A stretch of DNA of 21,280 bases. Source: a virus. The notes beneath the pieces were generated by a model. The model searched no databases and was not told the DNA's origin. It was given only the letters and a program-made list of their open reading frames with translations. The stretch lies in IMG/VR virus record IMGVR_UViG_3300024518_003477, positions 1 to 21,280 of that record, one strand, 5' to 3'. Each line of letters begins with the position of its first letter. Within the stretch, counting starts at the first letter, position 1. Positions 1-21,280 of this stretch are shown here, piece after piece. The position numbers were made by a program, and so were the translations under genes.

Positions 1-92
1 ACATGGGACGGCGAGCCAATAGCAATCACCTTGGCGGTCCAGTCCCCGGCCGTTCCCTTGAATTGGACAGCGATGGCCTCCGGAGCTCGCAT
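1..92 (-). CDS. Partial duplicate copy of alanine-rich head protein gene (5' end only)
   Basis: This is the first 30 codons of the gene given in full at 20775-21245, present a second time because of the terminal overlap. The ATG is at 92 on the minus strand, four bases after the stop of the major capsid gene, and the frame runs off the left edge. It is not an independent gene. Confidence 0.9.
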   Translation of the reverse strand, partial: MRAPEAIAVQFKGTAGDWTAKVIAIGSPSH

Positions 93-127
93 AGTATTAG
101 GAGGACTCTTGGAGGGTCAGGGCGCCG
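1..127. repeat. Terminal direct repeat, left copy (circle closure)
   Basis: These 127 bases are identical to the last 127 bases of the window, as read base by base. The repeat contains the 5' end of the alanine-rich head protein gene and the 3' end of the major capsid gene. Genes run through the join without disruption, which shows that the molecule is circular or circularly permuted. A length of exactly 127 matches a common assembler k-mer size, so the duplication itself is probably an assembly overlap rather than a biological terminal repeat. Confidence 0.95.
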
Positions 128-3997: not shown

Positions 3998-4633
3998 CTA
4001 ACCTTTTAAGGAATCCAAAGCAAGCGCTAGGGACTCTGCAAGTTTGCGGCGGTTCGCTTTCGATGGAATCCCGCCGGCCACCTGGGCCTCCAGGTCTGAG
4101 CACAAATCCTCCACCGTCCCAGGCCGGGCGCCTCGCTCCTCCATCAATCGCAAGACATCGCCGAGAATCCTCGCAATCTCCGCCCGCATCTTTTCGCGCA
4201 TCTTGGCTGGAGTGAGGCCCTCCAGAATTGGAGTCCATTGATTTGGAATCTGGAGCAGATGAGATCTGAAGATGGCGGCGATGGCCCGGCCGGCCTCCCG
4301 CGCCTCATCAGCGGTTACCCACTTATTCTTGGCGGCGTTTGCGTCGAGTTCCTTTTTAGTCGCATCGGCCGCCGCAATCCTGACTTTCTCCAACAGCAGT
4401 TGATACCGCAACTCCGCAACGGATGGGCCCTCGGTGGTGCCTGAATCCGGAGAGGGTTTCGTAATCAGCCAATCCGGGCATTTCCTTTGCTCCAGGAGAA
4501 TGCGGCGGAGTTCGGCGGCGTCATCTAGAGGATATCCCTTCGCCCGCCATTGCCGGACCATCTCCCGGGTGACATCCCCGCCGAGGAGTTTGGAGAGTCT
4601 GGCCTGGGACGCCGCCTCAGTTTCCTCAGTCAT
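3998..4633 (-). CDS. Terminase small subunit (Nu1-like, probable)
   Basis: This 211-residue protein is probably the DNA-recognition subunit of the packaging motor. The N-terminal 50 residues form a predicted winged helix or HTH (ARLSKLLGGDVTREMVRQWRAKGYPLDDAAELRRIL), as in lambda Nu1. A middle helix (SVAELRYQLLLEKVRIAAADATKKELDANAAK, split here by a short loop) and WVTADEAREAGRAI follow, a pattern familiar from small terminases that bind the large subunit. It lies directly upstream of portal and head genes but, unusually, 1.9 kb downstream of terL, with accessory genes between. I start at ATG 4633. A TTG at 4675 would add residues read from a repeated palindromic array and is less likely. Confidence 0.75.
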   Translation of the reverse strand: MTEETEAASQARLSKLLGGDVTREMVRQWRAKGYPLDDAAELRRILLEQRKCPDWLITKPSPDSGTTEGPSVAELRYQLLLEKVRIAAADATKKELDANAAKNKWVTADEAREAGRAIAAIFRSHLLQIPNQWTPILEGLTPAKMREKMRAEIARILGDVLRLMEERGARPGTVEDLCSDLEAQVAGGIPSKANRRKLAESLALALDSLKG

Positions 4634-4731
4634 GACCGCGGGAATTCCCCAAGTCCTAGCCAGGGAATTCCCCAAGTCCTAGCCAGGGGAATTCCCCTAG
4701 GCCGGTGGTTGGTTTGGTTGAACTGGTGCAT
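4630..4731 (-). CDS. Possible 33-residue leader ORF across the palindromic boxes
   Basis: An ATG at 4731 opens a 33-codon frame that ends with a TGA overlapping the small-terminase ATG (ATGA). Because it is read through the repeated boxes, the peptide is itself repetitive (RGIPLARTWGIP, then GLGEFPRS). A purine-rich GGCGGG lies about ten bases upstream. It could be a coupling leader for the terminase gene, but the sequence looks shaped by the DNA repeats rather than by protein function, so I give it low weight. Confidence 0.2.
   Translation of the reverse strand: MHQFNQTNHRPRGIPLARTWGIPWLGLGEFPRS
4640..4697. repeat. Three palindromic GGGAATTCCCC boxes in tandem (candidate packaging or operator site)
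   Basis: The boxes lie at 4640-4650, 4663-4673 and 4687-4697, with start-to-start spacings of 23 and 24 bases. The third is a perfect 12-bp palindrome, GGGGAATTCCCC (4686-4697). The linkers are also conserved (AAGTCCTAGCCA twice), so this is a tandem repeat of about 23 bp plus a third box. The array lies just upstream of the small-terminase gene. In lambda-like phages cosB, with three small-terminase binding sites, lies at this place relative to the small-subunit gene. A repressor operator is the main alternative. Confidence 0.7.
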
Positions 4732-4769
4732 AAAATTTTCCCGCCCTGCCCCCCGCAGCGCAGACCAGA

Positions 4770-5381
4770 TTAGAGGATATAGGGTTCCCACTCGTCAAAA
4801 CTCTCGGCAAGGATATCCACCAAGACCTGTTCATTTTGTGAATAAAAGCCCCATTCCTCCTCTGAATCGCCGAAGAACGGTTCCCACAAGCAAGCAATAG
4901 GCCGGGTTTTGCGGAGGAATTGACCGCCCCGCGTGTCCCTGGTGCCCGGTTTGGCGCCCCGCATCGGGAAAGATACCCCCTCCCCCTCCAGGTAGCGCCC
5001 CTGAACGTCCAGGAGGCGCCTGGCGTAGTCCTCGCCGGCTGTGCTACTATGCCAATAGAATGCCTCTCGGCCGCTTGCAGAGCCATTGTATGCGTTGAAA
5101 TGGAGTTCTAGCGCCAGGTCCGCTCCTTCCACTTGCTTGGCAATGTCAGTCATGGCCTCCGTATAGCTACGCCCGCCGTATACATCATACACCCGGACAT
5201 CATGCCGGCAGGGCTCAATCGCGGCCTTTGTCTTGTAGGCCACTCCCCGCCAAAAGCTCCACTCGTTTGTGGAACCATCGGCCGCAATGGCGCCGCCATC
5301 ATTGGTAGAGGCTGTCTGCCCGTCAGGCGTCACGCCGTGACTGATGCGCCGGGAATGCCCTATGCAGAGAGCTACCCTCAT
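4770..5381 (-). CDS. Endolysin, N-acetylmuramoyl-L-alanine amidase (Amidase_3)
   Basis: This 203-residue enzyme should cut the amide bond between N-acetylmuramic acid and L-alanine in peptidoglycan during lysis. The Amidase_3 zinc site is visible: His9 in ALCIGHS, Glu40 in TNEWSF and His94 in LELHFNA, plus the catalytic Glu167 in LWEPFF. The protein is a single catalytic domain with no signal peptide and no separate cell-wall-binding module, so export would need a holin. The start, ATG 5381, has a strong GGAGG sequence about nine bases upstream and overlaps the queD stop (ATGA). It sits far from the small membrane proteins at 10665-11195 that look like the rest of the lysis set. Confidence 0.92.
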   Translation of the reverse strand: MRVALCIGHSRRISHGVTPDGQTASTNDGGAIAADGSTNEWSFWRGVAYKTKAAIEPCRHDVRVYDVYGGRSYTEAMTDIAKQVEGADLALELHFNAYNGSASGREAFYWHSSTAGEDYARRLLDVQGRYLEGEGVSFPMRGAKPGTRDTRGGQFLRKTRPIACLWEPFFGDSEEEWGFYSQNEQVLVDILAESFDEWEPYIL

Positions 5382-5746
5382 TCGCCTGCCTCCTCACAAA
5401 TCACGATGCTAGTGGGCGTTTCCCACAGTGTGATGCGATGGCACCGGCCTAGCCGGTCCTCTACCTCTGTGAATAGCCAGGCTGCCAAATTCTCCGCCGT
5501 CGTCGCTTTTGCCATCAAATCATTCAGGTTTCTGTGGTCGAGCGTGGCCACTATAGGATCCACCGCCGCCGATATTTCCGCATAATCTATCACAAATCCC
5601 AGGCCGTTCACCGGGCCGGCAATCTCCACCAGAAACCGATATGAATGCCCATGAAGGCGTTTGCATTTGTGCCCATCAGGCAGATCAGGGAGGGAGTGCG
5701 CGGCCTCAAATCTAAACTCTTTTCCTACTGTGAAAAATTTAGCCAT
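5378..5746 (-). CDS. queD: 6-carboxy-5,6,7,8-tetrahydropterin synthase (QueD)
   Basis: This 122-residue protein belongs to the 6-pyruvoyltetrahydropterin synthase fold and matches bacterial QueD closely. QueD converts 7,8-dihydroneopterin triphosphate to 6-carboxytetrahydropterin, the second step of preQ0 (7-deazaguanine) synthesis. Zinc ligands are His17 (FEAAHSL), His32 and His34 (RLHGHSY). The catalytic Cys28 sits in GHKCKRLHGH, and Asp70-His71 in TLDHRNLND and Glu109 in LWETP complete the active site, so nothing essential is missing. It overlaps the dpdA-like gene by 22 bases and is coupled to the endolysin by ATGA. No FolE, QueE or QueC is present in the window, so the host must supply the other steps. 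A role in folate or biopterin metabolism is the alternative; the dpdA neighbour argues for DNA modification. Confidence 0.93.
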   Translation of the reverse strand: MAKFFTVGKEFRFEAAHSLPDLPDGHKCKRLHGHSYRFLVEIAGPVNGLGFVIDYAEISAAVDPIVATLDHRNLNDLMAKATTAENLAAWLFTEVEDRLGRCHRITLWETPTSIVICEEAGE

Positions 5747-6351
5747 GGTTCTCTAGTGATTGTTTTGCTCTCTTCTAGCCACAGGTCGAGTTCCCGAGTT
5801 CGCACAGGATCCCGGAACCACCCAGTCCCATCGCAAGACTCGGCGCCGGCAGAGGCCGCCTGGTTTAGCAAGCGCCGCGAATTCACGCGACCCACATGGA
5901 CTCGCGGGTAGTGGTCCGTCCATGTCCTCAAATTCTGCCATTTCCAACTGGTAGTTCCGCCTACGAAAATTACTGCGGCCTCTGATGGAACGTCCTCTGT
6001 TGTCATCCCGTCCTGTACTGCAAACGCCATGGGTATTCCAAAAGCCAGCAAGGCGGCGGAATGCTTTTCCCAGCGCCGCAACGTCTCATCCCTATCACCC
6101 ACCCAGTCCGGGCATATGACCCAAGAGGGATCCCAGGCCGCGTAGGCATCGAGGTACTTGTAGAGTGGTTCCTCCGACCATTCGCGGCCGGTTTGCCAGG
6201 CCCCGAATACTCCATTGTCCAGGGCCCATGGGATGCCTTGTTTCGGTTCTCGCGGGGAATCCACCGAGTGGAGATGCCCTATCTGGCCTGGGTATTTACC
6301 CGCGAGCCGGCCAGCGTCAAACCCGGTGTTATTGGAAATCATAACGATCAT
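5725..6351 (-). CDS. dpdA: DpdA-like / tRNA-guanine transglycosylase-like base exchange enzyme
   Basis: This 208-residue protein looks like a minimal TGT-fold enzyme of the phage DpdA type, which swaps guanine in DNA for a 7-deazaguanine base. Ordered motifs fit a TGT barrel: WALDNGVFGAW (Asp45, like the base-binding Asp of DSGG), VICPDWVGD (Asp82), AFAVQDG (Gln113, like the base-reading Gln), VIFVGGT (Gly131-Gly132), VHVGRVNS (about 151-158), and ESCDGTGW, where Asp174 is the candidate nucleophile. The C-terminal zinc site of tRNA TGTs (CxCxxC) is absent, and the protein is about half the length of bacterial TGT. It starts at ATG 6351, overlapping the previous stop, and overlaps queD, whose product feeds the same pathway. 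The assignment rests on my reading of motifs plus the queD pairing. The DNA rather than tRNA substrate, and the exact base, are inferred. Confidence 0.78.
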   Translation of the reverse strand: MIVMISNNTGFDAGRLAGKYPGQIGHLHSVDSPREPKQGIPWALDNGVFGAWQTGREWSEEPLYKYLDAYAAWDPSWVICPDWVGDRDETLRRWEKHSAALLAFGIPMAFAVQDGMTTEDVPSEAAVIFVGGTTSWKWQNLRTWTDHYPRVHVGRVNSRRLLNQAASAGAESCDGTGWFRDPVRTRELDLWLEESKTITREPWLNFSQ

Positions 6352-6539
6352 TCCCCAGCCTCCTCTATCTCTCTGGCCGCCTGTTCCGCCAGCCTGGCCG
6401 CCCTCTCCTTACGCCGGCGTCTCGCTAGCTTTATGTCGCGCTCCCGGACCTGGTTGAACGTCATCTTGGGAAATCCACGGGATTCCATGAACTTGTCACA
6501 AGCCGTGTTCATCGCGTTCTTGTACCTGTTATCACTCAT
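6348..6539 (-). CDS. Small charged helical protein between terL and dpdA
   Basis: This 63-residue protein of unknown function has a polar first half (NRYKNAMNTACDKFMESRGF) and a strongly basic then acidic helix (LARRRRKERAARLAEQAAREIEEAGE). The ATG overlaps the terL stop by one base (TAATG) and has a strong GAGGAGG just upstream; its own stop overlaps the dpdA-like start (ATGA). It is therefore certainly translated in the same unit. The Arg-rich helix could bind nucleic acid or serve as a partner for terminase or DpdA, but nothing in the sequence settles this. Confidence 0.75.
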   Translation of the reverse strand: MSDNRYKNAMNTACDKFMESRGFPKMTFNQVRERDIKLARRRRKERAARLAEQAAREIEEAGE

Positions 6540-8431
6540 TATTCCTCCTCTTTGCTCTCTTCGCTTAGGCCGGCCGAGATGACGCCCCGTAGGGAAGACA
6601 GCACAAGCCCCATCACTTCACAATCCCAGATGTGATTGGCCACCTTGTCCGATGCCTTGCCCTTGGCATTCACTTTCATCCAGTTCCATTTCCCTGGTGA
6701 TACCTCAATTTTCGCCTCGCTCTGCATCTGGGCCCCGTATTCCTCGCTGTGATTGGTGAAGACTCCAAACGGCCTGGATCCCGCCATCATGGCGGCCAGG
6801 GCATCCTTGGCCATCAGGTTGGAGAACTTCACAACCTGATAGGGCGTGCCCTCACTTGTTTTCATGGAAAGGGCGGGAGAATAGACCTTCCGAACCTTGA
6901 TTTTCTGACGGCCGCGGATTTCGTGATGCGGGAAACTCTCGGCCCGGTCTCCTCTGAGCATCACCCAGCAGGAGAATCCGACCACTTTACCGTTTCTCCT
7001 TACCTCTTTGCGGTATTTCCACCTGGCATTGGCCACCCGTTCGGGCTCAAACCCGCAATCGATGCCCACATTCTCGTTTGTGACCTCAAACCGCTTCTGC
7101 GTCTCCCTCACGATCTCCATGGAAGCCAGCCGCCCCTCGTATAATAGCCGGCTGGACCCGTCGAGGCGCCAGGCCCGGATGATGGCCCAGTAGTGGTCTC
7201 CCTGGACATCCACGGCCATGAAGCGGAATGCCTCCCGCTCCCACCGCGGCGCGGCCTCCCCTGACGGCGGGAAATAGTCATTTCGGGAATAGGGCTCGCC
7301 GGCATCCAGATTCAGCACCGGCGTGACTGGGCGCTCAGACCAGAACCTAGCCAGCCTCTTCATGACGAAGGCCCGCATCTTGCTGGTATCGCCCGCCATC
7401 TCGGCCCTCCTCGCCTGGAGGTATTGAACTACAAGCTTTTCCCATGGCACCCAGTGGGCCGCCAGCACCGATACAGTATGAGATACCCAGCCCGGGATAC
7501 CCTCATGATGGTCCAGAGCAATCAACACCTGGCGCATAGCAAGCCGGCGGCGATTAACAGGTGTATCCCGGAGGCCCTTCCCACAGCAGGGCGTGACATA
7601 CCGAACGGTCTTCAATAGCCGGGCCCATGGCACCTGGTCCGCGCTGGCCAGATCAGCGTCCCAAGTCATGACCGCCTCGAAATCCGCGGCCGGATCCCCG
7701 CTCTGGGGCATATAGGGCGCCTGTTCCTTGCACCAGGGGCAATCAAACCCGGTGGTATAGAGCGCACCGCCCAGGTATTCCCCCTCGAACTCGCTCCCCT
7801 CCACTCCTCCCTGGCCGCACCAGACCATTTTTTCGTCAAATCTGTCGTGGGTCCGGGCCTTGGCCTCCGAAATGGCGCCGTTCGCTGGCCAGTCCCATAC
7901 TTCCTGGCCCCCCACAATGGGCAGACTTTTATCCTGTAGGTTCCGCATATTGGCCCCTCCGAAATACAGCGTGCACCCGTTCGCCAGGGACAGCTCCAGC
8001 TTCCGCTTCTTATGCCGGTGGGTTGTCCGCATGATGGGCGCGGTGGCCGGGCACGCCTCCAGGGTTGGCACCACTCGCTTCTCAACCCACTGGGCCGCTG
8101 GGCGGTCTGTCTGATGCGAGAACTGGGCATCTGAGGGATTCTCTGCCACCGTGTGAGCGATCCAGGCCTCAAAAAATACGCTTTTCCCAAACCCGGTTGG
8201 CCAGACCAGTGTGATGTTGCGGATGTCCGGATTCCCTATCCAGTCAAAGGCGAAGCGCTGGCTAGGAACCGCGTCAGGATCAAAAAACGCCCCTTTTCCG
8301 CCCACCAGCTGGACGTTCTCGGCCGCCCATTCGTATATCGGCCTAGTGTCCGGAGGCGCCAAGGAATCGGCCGCTCCTGATAAGATTGGATTAATTTTCA
8401 AAGGTCTTCTTAATCTTAATGGGGCCAACAA
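6539..8431 (-). CDS. terL: Terminase large subunit (GpA family)
   Basis: This 630-residue packaging motor combines an ATPase and an endonuclease. The ATPase domain opens with PIYEWAAENVQLVGG, the usual GpA entry, and has a Walker A-like WPTGFGKS (about residues 77-84). The region LPIVGGQEVWDWP lies where the GpA Walker B/DEVD segment is expected, though the acidic residues are not canonical. A zinc-ribbon-like pair (DCPWCKEQ and PCCGKG) follows, as in GpA proteins. The nuclease domain begins FRFMAVDVQGDHY, with the metal-binding Asp after a beta strand. The start is TTG at 8431: an in-frame stop lies just upstream, an AAGG motif precedes it, and no upstream ATG exists. The stop overlaps the next gene. 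The GpA family is typical of cos-type lambda-like packaging. Confidence 0.95.
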   Translation of the reverse strand: MLAPLRLRRPLKINPILSGAADSLAPPDTRPIYEWAAENVQLVGGKGAFFDPDAVPSQRFAFDWIGNPDIRNITLVWPTGFGKSVFFEAWIAHTVAENPSDAQFSHQTDRPAAQWVEKRVVPTLEACPATAPIMRTTHRHKKRKLELSLANGCTLYFGGANMRNLQDKSLPIVGGQEVWDWPANGAISEAKARTHDRFDEKMVWCGQGGVEGSEFEGEYLGGALYTTGFDCPWCKEQAPYMPQSGDPAADFEAVMTWDADLASADQVPWARLLKTVRYVTPCCGKGLRDTPVNRRRLAMRQVLIALDHHEGIPGWVSHTVSVLAAHWVPWEKLVVQYLQARRAEMAGDTSKMRAFVMKRLARFWSERPVTPVLNLDAGEPYSRNDYFPPSGEAAPRWEREAFRFMAVDVQGDHYWAIIRAWRLDGSSRLLYEGRLASMEIVRETQKRFEVTNENVGIDCGFEPERVANARWKYRKEVRRNGKVVGFSCWVMLRGDRAESFPHHEIRGRQKIKVRKVYSPALSMKTSEGTPYQVVKFSNLMAKDALAAMMAGSRPFGVFTNHSEEYGAQMQSEAKIEVSPGKWNWMKVNAKGKASDKVANHIWDCEVMGLVLSSLRGVISAGLSEESKEEE

Positions 8432-8495
8432 GTGGCCTTTTTAGCAGTTAATCGCCTTAGCCTCAACCCGTTGCGTCTGGGAATAGCGTGTCAAT

Positions 8496-8525
8496 ATTAT
8501 GGGAACATCCTGGGCATAGGTTCAA
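8496..8525 (-). promoter_or_regulatory. Candidate sigma70-type promoter for the terL transcription unit
   Basis: On the minus strand a TTGAAC (8520-8525) and a CATAAT (8496-8501) are separated by 18 bases. The -10 matches the consensus at five of six positions and the -35 at four of six. The predicted transcript would start near 8489, about 58 bases before the terL TTG, in the 90-base gap between genes. A TTGACA at 8489-8494 has no good -10 partner. Confidence 0.45.
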
Positions 8526-8761
8526 TAGTCCGGAGTTGCTCGCTCTTGTTCGTTCTTGTCCACCGCTTGTTGACAGGTTGCCCGCAGCTTATCCACATTC
8601 CGAAGGTTCGCCCGGATCAGGGGAAGCAAGTCCAACGGCGGCCAGGGAATCTCCAGGCTGCCTGGCAATTCCAGGCGCCGGGAGAGTTCCGCCAGGATGC
8701 TCTGGCCGGCCTCCAGTTCCGCGAAGTAATGGCGGAGCACCTTTACCCCATCCTCTACCAT
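8522..8761 (-). CDS. Hypothetical 79-residue helical protein
   Basis: I do not recognise this protein. It begins MVEDGVKVLRHYFAELEAGQSILAELSRRLELPG, a helical stretch with heptad-like leucines. A Pro-rich centre (IPWPPLDLLPLIRANLRNVDKL) and a polar C-terminal tail follow. The start ATG overlaps the stop of a possible 25-residue membrane peptide (ATGGTAG), and the stop lies within the proposed -35 element of the terL promoter. It is the last gene before terL. A regulatory or small-terminase-like role is conceivable but unsupported. Confidence 0.6.
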   Translation of the reverse strand: MVEDGVKVLRHYFAELEAGQSILAELSRRLELPGSLEIPWPPLDLLPLIRANLRNVDKLRATCQQAVDKNEQERATPDY

Positions 8762-20778: not shown

Positions 20779-21245
20779 CTCTTACGCTTGCCGGCTTTTT
20801 TCGCGGCCTTCTTTGCCGGGGCGGCCTTTTTCGCCGGGGCGGCCGGTTTGCTGGCCTTGGCCGCATTCACCGCGGCCTCTGCTTTGTCAACCGCTGCCTG
20901 AGCGGCCGCAACGATTGCGGTGGCCTTGGCCTCTGCCGTTGCGAGTTCCGCGGCCTTGGCTTCCGCTGCCTGGGTGGCGGCGGAGATTCTGCCATCAATA
21001 GCGGCGGGCGCGGCAGCCTTGGCTGCCCGGCGGTCCTCTAGAATTTTATTCGCATCCGCCAGGCCGGCGGCTGCAAAATCAGCACCTGAATAAGTGCAAG
21101 CAATCCCGGATCCGCTCTTGATTGAAAGCGCCGCCTCACTGGCCGCGGCCTCCACATGGGACGGCGAGCCAATAGCAATCACCTTGGCGGTCCAGTCCCC
21201 GGCCGTTCCCTTGAATTGGACAGCGATGGCCTCCGGAGCTCGCAT
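20775..21245 (-). CDS. Alanine-rich head protein with histone H1-like basic tail
   Basis: This 156-residue protein has three parts: an N-terminal beta-like domain (about 1-50; MRAPEAIAVQFKGTAGDWTA), a long Ala-rich helix with heptad-like spacing (about 65-130; AATQAAEAKAAELATAEAKA and similar), and a basic tail of about 25 residues with PAKKA repeats ending AKKAGKRKR. The tail closely resembles histone H1 or bacterial Hc1-like segments and should bind DNA or acidic surfaces. It comes directly after the major capsid gene (four bases after its stop), so it may be a decoration, connector or internal DNA-binding protein. The start region is duplicated at 1-92. No family name is offered. Confidence 0.75.
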   Translation of the reverse strand: MRAPEAIAVQFKGTAGDWTAKVIAIGSPSHVEAAASEAALSIKSGSGIACTYSGADFAAAGLADANKILEDRRAAKAAAPAAIDGRISAATQAAEAKAAELATAEAKATAIVAAAQAAVDKAEAAVNAAKASKPAAPAKKAAPAKKAAKKAGKRKR

Positions 21246-21280
21246 AGTATTAGGAGGACTCTTGGAGGGTCAGGGCGCCG
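21154..21280. repeat. Terminal direct repeat, right copy (circle closure)
   Basis: Exact copy of the first 127 bases. When the two copies are merged, the major capsid gene is followed directly by the alanine-rich head protein gene, with only a few bases between stop and start. The true unit length is therefore 21,153 bp. Confidence 0.95.

What the first reader, a model, noticed from the sequence alone, without database searches (positions are those of the whole stretch)
5378..6351. dpdA-like and queD pair: likely 7-deazaguanine DNA modification in a 21-kb phage
Two overlapping genes encode a TGT-fold base exchanger with DpdA-type motifs (ALDNG, AVQDG, FVGG, SCDGT) and a QueD with its full active site. 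From established work on 7-deazaguanine DNA in phages and on the bacterial dpd system, this pair points to replacement of guanine by a preQ0-derived base that blocks host restriction. Known phage carriers that I recall have much larger genomes, so a set this small in a phage this small is notable. The substrate and the final base are inferred.
Basis: partly seen in the sequence, partly recalled or inferred. Interest (0 to 1): 0.85.

Follow-up and report, generated by a model that had tools for sequence, protein, structure and literature searches.

The report
Compact dpdA–queD cassette in tiny phage
A very small virus of bacteria carries two side-by-side genes that most likely let it swap some guanines in its DNA for a modified guanine made largely by its host, probably to hide from the host's DNA-cutting defences; the chemistry is known from larger phages, but this compact two-gene version is common in viral sequence and looks undescribed.

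Summary
Two overlapping minus-strand genes (5725-6351, 208 aa; 5378-5746, 122 aa) lie in an apparently circular 21.15-kb phage. The second is QueD (Pfam PTPS 8.7e-32), active site complete. The first has no Pfam or NCBIfam match. It folds confidently as a TIM barrel (pLDDT 91.9); TGT is the commonest family among its PDB matches, though other barrels score alike. A profile of known phage DpdA proteins aligns to its family through every catalytic motif (E 6.6e-9; controls far lower) and finds its relatives in DNA. All five catalytic positions are invariant in 81 of 81 sequences. In 29 of 47 distinct viral relatives queD lies within 650 bp; others carry queC, and one carries queD-queE-folE-queC. 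A relative of this phage lacks exactly this cassette. The best reading is post-replicative exchange of guanine for a host-supplied 7-deazaguanine, with QueD raising precursor supply. It is a compact DpdA lineage distinct from the DpdA1 and DpdA2 proteins compared here (DpdA3/4 not settled), hence a new variant of a known kind. DNA as substrate, the final base and restriction protection are not shown.

The parts
5725..6351 (-). compact DpdA-like transglycosylase (208 aa): Asp45 (ALDNG), Asp82 (CPDWVGD), Gln113 (AVQDG), Gly131-Gly132 (FVGG), His152 (VHVG), Asp174 nucleophile (CDGTGW)
5378..5746 (-). QueD (6-carboxytetrahydropterin synthase, 122 aa), active site complete
   Evidence: PF01242 8.7e-32; TIGR03367 87.2 bits (cut-off 89.25)
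6348..6365 (-). 18-nt boundary repeat, upstream copy: end of the 63-aa gene, RBS-like GAGGAGG and dpdA start (GAGGAGGCTGGGGAATGA)
   Evidence: 16/18 identical to the other copy, no other site in the genome at 14/18 or better
5378..5395 (-). 18-nt boundary repeat, downstream copy: end of queD, RBS-like GAGGAGG and endolysin start (GAGGAGGCAGGCGAATGA)
6348..6539 (-). 63-aa gene directly upstream; its counterpart in related contig L179 abuts the endolysin gene with no cassette between them
4770..5381 (-). endolysin (N-acetylmuramoyl-L-alanine amidase), directly downstream; 59% identical to the L179 endolysin
6539..8431 (-). terminase large subunit (630 aa), upstream in the same gene string
1..127 (.). 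127-nt terminal direct repeat, identical to 21154-21280; reads as the overlap of a circular assembly, unique length 21,153 bp
21154..21280 (.). second copy of the terminal repeat

Best explanation
The pair is a compact phage DNA-modification cassette. Inferred mechanism: the 208-aa protein is a minimal TGT-superfamily transglycosylase (DpdA type). Asp174 attacks C1' of a target deoxyguanosine, guanine leaves, and a 7-deazaguanine base (most likely preQ0, possibly ADG or CDG) takes its place in DNA that the host machinery has already replicated. QueD converts the host's dihydroneopterin triphosphate, made by host FolE for folate, into CPH4; this first committed step raises flux through the host's own QueE and QueC to preQ0. 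The result would be partial replacement of G in the virion DNA and resistance to some host restriction enzymes. Supported by computation: homology to DpdA1, a barrel fold matching TGT among others, complete catalytic residues in both enzymes, recurrent linkage to preQ0 genes, and gain or loss as a unit. Inferred: DNA rather than tRNA as substrate, identity of the base, dependence on the host, protection from restriction.
For: AF2 model pLDDT 91.9, pTM 0.88. TGT is the commonest family among the best PDB matches (E about 3e-5, TM about 0.60); viral matches are annotated queuine TGTs (Mufasa8, Megan, Bella96, Sonali gp87) and nt-1 DpdA2. hhalign against a DpdA1 alignment gives probability 95.8, E 6.6e-9, score 65.6 across all motifs, against 13.1 reversed and at most 31.3 in 60 shuffles. 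The DpdA1 HMM detects this family in DNA at E down to 2.7e-9. Shared signature: DpdA1 DSSxW, here DGTGW, but FDCVMP in TGT. queD lies within 650 bp in 29 of 47 distinct viral relatives, downstream in 25 and upstream in 4. L021, L025 and L026 carry queC instead. L027 carries queD-dpdA-queE-folE-queC with no DpdA1 gene found. A relative of this phage lacks the cassette. Published precedent: CAjan loses dPreQ0 when dpdA is deleted; dpdA-only phages 7-11 and MED16 carry low dADG, consistent with host supply (PMC6884629, PMC8306585).
Against: No direct match to Pfam TGT, and none to E. coli TGT or nt-1 DpdA2 by profile comparison. Generic TIM barrels (ribulose-phosphate epimerase) score as well as TGT in Foldseek and one is the top PDB hit, so fold alone does not decide. 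15 of 47 viral clusters show neither queD nor queC in the sequence held. Distant members occur in phages of Mycobacterium smegmatis, which lacks preQ0 genes (PMC6884629), and in phages that also encode DpdA1, so the family may not be uniform in function. No preQ1 riboswitch or other Rfam match. The host, and whether it makes preQ0, are unknown.
Confidence: 0.75

Rival explanations
1. tRNA rather than DNA: the pair raises queuosine-type modification of host GUN-anticodon tRNAs during infection, with QueD boosting precursor and the TGT-like protein inserting it.
For: Catalytic order and the Gln113 base-pocket residue match E. coli TGT (TDSGG, FDE, IIQG, VGG, FDCVMP in the translation); QueD serves tRNA queuosine as well.
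Against: Closest profile relatives are DpdA1 proteins, whose studied members modify DNA (PMC6884629). No PF01702 match. The cysteine-rich zinc motif of TGT (CDCYTC) is absent and the protein is about 170 residues shorter. The CDGTGW and His152 signatures are DpdA-like.
Confidence: 0.1
2. A TGT-fold enzyme that exchanges or removes another base, or inserts a pathway intermediate other than preQ0 (for example CDG, made when QueD is in excess and QueC limiting). The compact subfamily would then have its own substrate.
For: Sonali, R29Z and phiG7 carry both DpdA1 and a compact homologue (intact or, in phiG7, split), implying non-redundant roles. Compact homologues sit beside a PAPS-reductase-like gene in ReqiPine5 and near one in R6L. 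Members occur in mycobacteriophages whose host lacks preQ0 genes (PMC6884629).
Against: The window's own clade is repeatedly joined to queD or queC and once to the full preQ0 set; the exceptions are the distant 28-35% branch.
Confidence: 0.13
3. The two genes are unrelated neighbours: queD acts on host pterin or folate metabolism and the TGT-like protein is degenerate.
For: queD alone cannot complete preQ0 synthesis; tight packing of phage genes makes neighbours common.
Against: Adjacency recurs in 29 of 47 clusters and in more than one order; dpdA and queD similarities correlate across loci (Mantel r 0.40, 0 of 2000 permutations); catalytic residues are invariant and purifying selection is strong.
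Confidence: 0.02

Closest known systems
Phage DpdA1 (phages 9g, CAjan, Rosebush): 7-deazaguanine DNA transglycosylase
   Same: Homologous by profile; same order of catalytic motifs; D-x-[ST]-x-W nucleophile motif and a His in the preceding strand motif; linked to preQ0 synthesis genes.
   Different: About 200 aa against 251-332 aa in the set compared; Gln113 in place of the His of FHxGE (invariant in 81/81); here paired with queD only. Several phages carry both proteins, so it is a separate lineage rather than a truncated DpdA1.
DpdA-only phages (Salmonella 7-11, Pantoea MED16, Mycobacterium Orion)
   Same: Rely on the host for preQ0 synthesis; 7-11 and MED16 DNA carries low dADG (PMC6884629, PMC8306585).
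   Different: They carry no preQ0 gene; this phage brings the first committed step, QueD.
Mycobacterium phage Majeke gp54, Arthrobacter phages Sonali gp81 and Aoka gp40 (annotated as DpdA-like tRNA-guanine transglycosylase or hypothetical)
   Same: Same compact family (29-35% identity by tblastn; alignment A3).
   Different: No queD beside them in the stretches read; no experimental study of these found in the papers searched.
Bacterial and archaeal tRNA-guanine transglycosylase (PF01702)
   Same: Fold match among TIM barrels and five catalytic positions in the same order.
   Different: No PF01702 match, no cysteine-rich zinc motif, about 170 residues shorter.
DpdA2 (Vibrio phage nt-1)
   Same: Foldseek match (R9TGF0, E 1.1e-4).
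   Different: No profile-level sequence match; the nt-1 protein is 464 aa.

Membership tests
TGT superfamily (fold level) | TGT-type beta/alpha barrel | tested here: met
   pLDDT 91.9; TGT the commonest PDB family, but generic barrels score equally
TGT superfamily (fold level) | general-acid/base Asp, base-binding Asp, Gln, Gly-Gly, nucleophile Asp in that order | tested here: met
   D45, D82, Q113, G131-G132, D174, invariant in 81/81; order matches E. coli TGT
tRNA-guanine transglycosylase PF01702 | match to the Pfam TGT model | tested here: not met
   no match at E up to 1 (protein; genome)
tRNA-guanine transglycosylase PF01702 | C-terminal cysteine-rich zinc motif | tested here: not met
   absent from the 208-aa sequence; present in E. 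coli TGT as CDCYTC
Phage DpdA, broad sense | sequence homology to characterised phage DpdA | tested here: met
   (E 6.6e-9), controls; DpdA1 HMM detects relatives, (the window's own gene does not reach the threshold there)
Phage DpdA, broad sense | D-x-[ST]-x-W nucleophile motif | tested here: met
   CDGTGW here, DSSSW or DSSGW in most DpdA1 proteins compared
Phage DpdA, broad sense | genomic link to preQ0 synthesis genes | tested here: met
Phage DpdA, broad sense | exchanges guanine for a 7-deazaguanine in DNA | not testable with these tools
   needs LC-MS/MS or an enzyme assay
DpdA1 subfamily | His in the FHxGE motif (H132 in CAjan, invariant in the ten compared) | tested here: not met
   Gln113 in 81/81
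DpdA2 subfamily | profile similarity to nt-1 DpdA2 | tested here: not met
DpdA3 and DpdA4 subfamilies | similarity to Campylobacter-phage or archaeal-virus DpdA | tested here: inconclusive
   A3 finds nothing in Campylobacter phage NCTC12673; archaeal type not retrieved. These subfamily names are from memory of Cui et al. 2023, which is not held
QueD (TIGR03367 / PF01242) | Pfam PTPS match | tested here: met
   8.7e-32, 110 bits (cut-off 22.4)
QueD (TIGR03367 / PF01242) | zinc His triad, catalytic Cys, Asp-His and Glu | tested here: met
   HKC...LHGHS, LDH and ET motifs line up with solved QueD enzymes
QueD (TIGR03367 / PF01242) | NCBIfam equivalog cut-off | tested here: not met
   87.2 against 89.25 bits, narrowly below
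Bacterial dpd defence system | dpdA with further dpd genes | tested here: not met
   no PADLOC match for the two proteins; neighbours are terminase and endolysin

The most novel reading that the evidence does not exclude
The compact proteins form a separate DpdA subfamily with its own base or sequence preference. It travels as a one- or two-gene cassette that adds a single preQ0-pathway step (queD or queC), so that each phage tops up only the step its host is short of. Some phages carry it beside DpdA1, implying two guanine-exchange activities in one virion.
Probability: 0.25. Interest if true: 0.72.

Novelty: new variant of a known kind. Interest (0 to 1): 0.52.

Why it matters
If true, DNA camouflage by 7-deazaguanine does not need a large genome or a full biosynthetic cluster. 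About 970 bp, placed between two genes of a 21-kb phage, would suffice with host metabolism supplying the rest. With at least 241 relatives in IMG/VR the compact form is common, yet it has no model in Pfam or NCBIfam and is of unknown function in PHROGs. It also offers a roughly 200-residue enzyme, smaller than the 251-332 aa of the DpdA1 proteins compared here, for structural and enzymatic work on DNA base exchange.

Tried and rejected
Fold alone as proof: rejected as insufficient, since epimerase barrels score like TGT; sequence profiles with shuffled controls were added. Direct match to PF01702, E. coli TGT and nt-1 DpdA2: none. PDB sequence search with the single protein and with the alignment: nothing meaningful. 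PADLOC: nothing. preQ1 riboswitches or other Rfam families in the window and 12 loci: none. Canonical DpdA1 elsewhere in the window or in L027: not found (the L027 hit is the compact gene itself). The other preQ0 genes in the window: QueC, FolE and radical SAM families absent. Campylobacter phage NCTC12673 as a source of DpdA3: no match. DNA-level similarity of 4600-8600 to named phages: none. The DpdA3/DpdA4 paper is not held. Host prediction: not achieved; terminase relatives among named phages are all distant (best coverage Verrucomicrobia phage P8625, 21% identity).

Full report
What is there. The window is an IMG/VR virus record of 21,280 bases with a 127-nt identical terminal repeat, which reads as a circular assembly of 21,153 unique bases. 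The recognisable genes are on the minus strand: terminase large and small subunits, portal, head protease, endolysin, tape measure and a large virion protein. No replication gene was recognised among the ORFs scanned. On the minus strand the order is terminase large subunit, a 63-aa gene, dpdA-like (5725-6351), queD (5378-5746), endolysin, terminase small subunit. The junctions around the pair are short overlaps (4 nt, 22 nt, 4 nt), so it sits in the packaging and lysis gene string.

QueD. The 122-aa product matches PF01242 at 8.7e-32 and TIGR03367 at 87.2 bits, just under its 89.25 cut-off. phmmer against solved structures gives 3e-25 and aligns HKC...LHGHS, LDH and ET with solved QueD enzymes. 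It should be an active 6-carboxytetrahydropterin synthase.

The DpdA-like protein. There is no Pfam or NCBIfam match and one strong PHROG of unknown function (phrog_15826, 2e-30); the queuine TGT PHROG is only marginal (phrog_887, 0.05). A 30-sequence alignment gave an AlphaFold2 model with pLDDT 91.9 and pTM 0.88. Foldseek against the PDB lists mostly TGT structures (E about 3e-5, TM about 0.60), but ribulose-phosphate epimerase barrels score as well and one ranks first. In the viral library the matches include annotated queuine TGTs, Sonali gp87 and nt-1 DpdA2.

Sequence evidence is stronger. hhalign of the family against ten DpdA1-type proteins gives probability 95.8, E 6.6e-9, score 65.6, aligning LDSGAFSA with ALDNGVFGA, LDxIGD with PDWVGD, FHxGE with VQDGM, IGG with VGG, the HxxGxT motif with HVGRVN, and CDSSSW with CDGTGW. 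The reversed profile scores 13.1 and 60 shuffles at most 31.3. An HMM of the same DpdA1 set finds the compact gene in 11 uncultivated viral contigs at E 3e-9 to 2e-6. The window's own gene does not reach that threshold on its own.

Residues. In E. coli TGT the order is TDSGG, FDE, IIQG, VGG, FDCVMP; the zinc motif CDCYTC follows. The compact family keeps Asp45, Asp82, Gln113, Gly131-132 and Asp174 in 81 of 81 sequences. Gln113 is as in TGT, where the DpdA1 proteins compared have His. The tryptophan of the nucleophile motif and His152 are as in DpdA1 and not in TGT. The zinc motif is absent. This makes it a compact lineage of its own within the DpdA/TGT group.

Genomic association. Among 80 viral loci, 47 are distinct at 95%. 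In 29 of these queD lies within 650 bp, most often overlapping, downstream in 25 and upstream in 4. Three more have queC beside the gene (L021, L025, L026). L069 has queD-queC-dpdA, and L072 and L073 carry queC and queD together as well; L005 has queD and queE; L027 has queD-dpdA-queE-folE-queC in one run. L093 (an acidobacterial genome contig) has queC-dpdA. No DpdA1 gene was found beside the L027 set. dpdA and queD similarities correlate across loci (Mantel r 0.40, 0 of 2000 permutations). Such recurrence in different orders is not expected of chance neighbours.

A movable cassette. The terminase large subunit finds two clear relatives (L179, 82%; L180, 90% over the part held). In L179 the counterparts of the 63-aa gene (38%) and the endolysin (59%) abut directly, with no dpdA or queD match anywhere in that 18.2-kb record. 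In the window the cassette is bounded by two 18-nt copies, GAGGAGGCTGGGGAATGA and GAGGAGGCAGGCGAATGA (16/18), with no other site in the genome at 14/18 or better. Each spans a ribosome-binding-like sequence and a start-stop overlap; queD and the 63-aa gene both end in EEAGE. This suggests insertion by short homology. It is one comparison and an inference.

Mechanism. Phage DpdA proteins exchange guanine in DNA for preQ0-type bases: CAjan loses its dPreQ0 when dpdA is deleted, and phages carrying DpdA without preQ0 genes (7-11, MED16) have low dADG, consistent with host supply (PMC6884629, PMC8306585). Here QueD is the only pathway gene. QueD acts on the product of FolE, which folate synthesis provides, so the simplest reading is that it diverts this pool towards preQ0 while the host supplies QueE and QueC. 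With no replication gene of its own recognised, the phage would need a post-replicative route, which base exchange is. Shown by computation: homology, fold class, intact active sites, linkage, gain or loss as a unit. Not shown: substrate, final base, dependence on the host, protection from restriction.

Doubts. Compact homologues at 28-35% identity occur in phages of M. smegmatis, a host reported to lack preQ0 genes (PMC6884629). Sonali and R29Z encode an intact compact homologue as well as DpdA1; in phiG7 the compact homologue is split over two ORFs. ReqiPine5 and R6L have PAPS-reductase-like genes beside or near it. The distant branch may do something else.

Known or new. The chemistry and enzyme class are known. 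The compact subfamily, its pairing with one pathway step and its presence in a 21-kb genome look undescribed in what could be searched. The main paper on DpdA3 and DpdA4 (Cui et al. 2023, from memory) is not held, so overlap with those subfamilies is not excluded. I rate it a new variant of a known kind.

Noticed in passing
window 6348-6365 and 5378-5395: 18-nt near-identical sequences (16/18) at both ends of the dpdA-queD cassette and nowhere else in the genome; a possible footprint of cassette insertion.
   Followed up: partly
L027 5663-8322: Complete compact-dpdA preQ0 operon (queD, dpdA, queE, folE, queC) in about 2.7 kb of a 22-kb viral contig.
   Followed up: partly
L091 3884-4501 and 6871-7761; L086 2638-3588 and 4767-5351; L087 3384-4304 and 5720-6312: Phages Sonali, R29Z and phiG7 encode both a DpdA1 and a compact homologue; in phiG7 the compact homologue is split over two ORFs beside the DNA polymerase gene.
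   Followed up: partly
L089 3896-5527 and L085 3890-6395: Compact homologue directly beside (ReqiPine5) or near (R6L) a PAPS-reductase-family gene; a possible further partner in base modification.
   Followed up: no
L001 1551-2303 and L180 2565-3473: Cytosine-methyltransferase-like genes (GGFPC motif, judged by eye) upstream of dpdA in L001 and of the terminase in a close relative of the window phage, suggesting that DNA-modification genes recur near this part of these genomes.
   Followed up: no
L005 6531-7022: Between dpdA and queD lies an ORF whose sequence suggests a nucleoside 2-deoxyribosyltransferase-like protein; judged by eye, not searched.
   Followed up: no
L178 (MT835752.1, 19,253 bp, human faecal contig): Another small phage-like record with a weak DpdA1-type match (27% identity); completeness unknown, record flagged unverified.
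   Followed up: no
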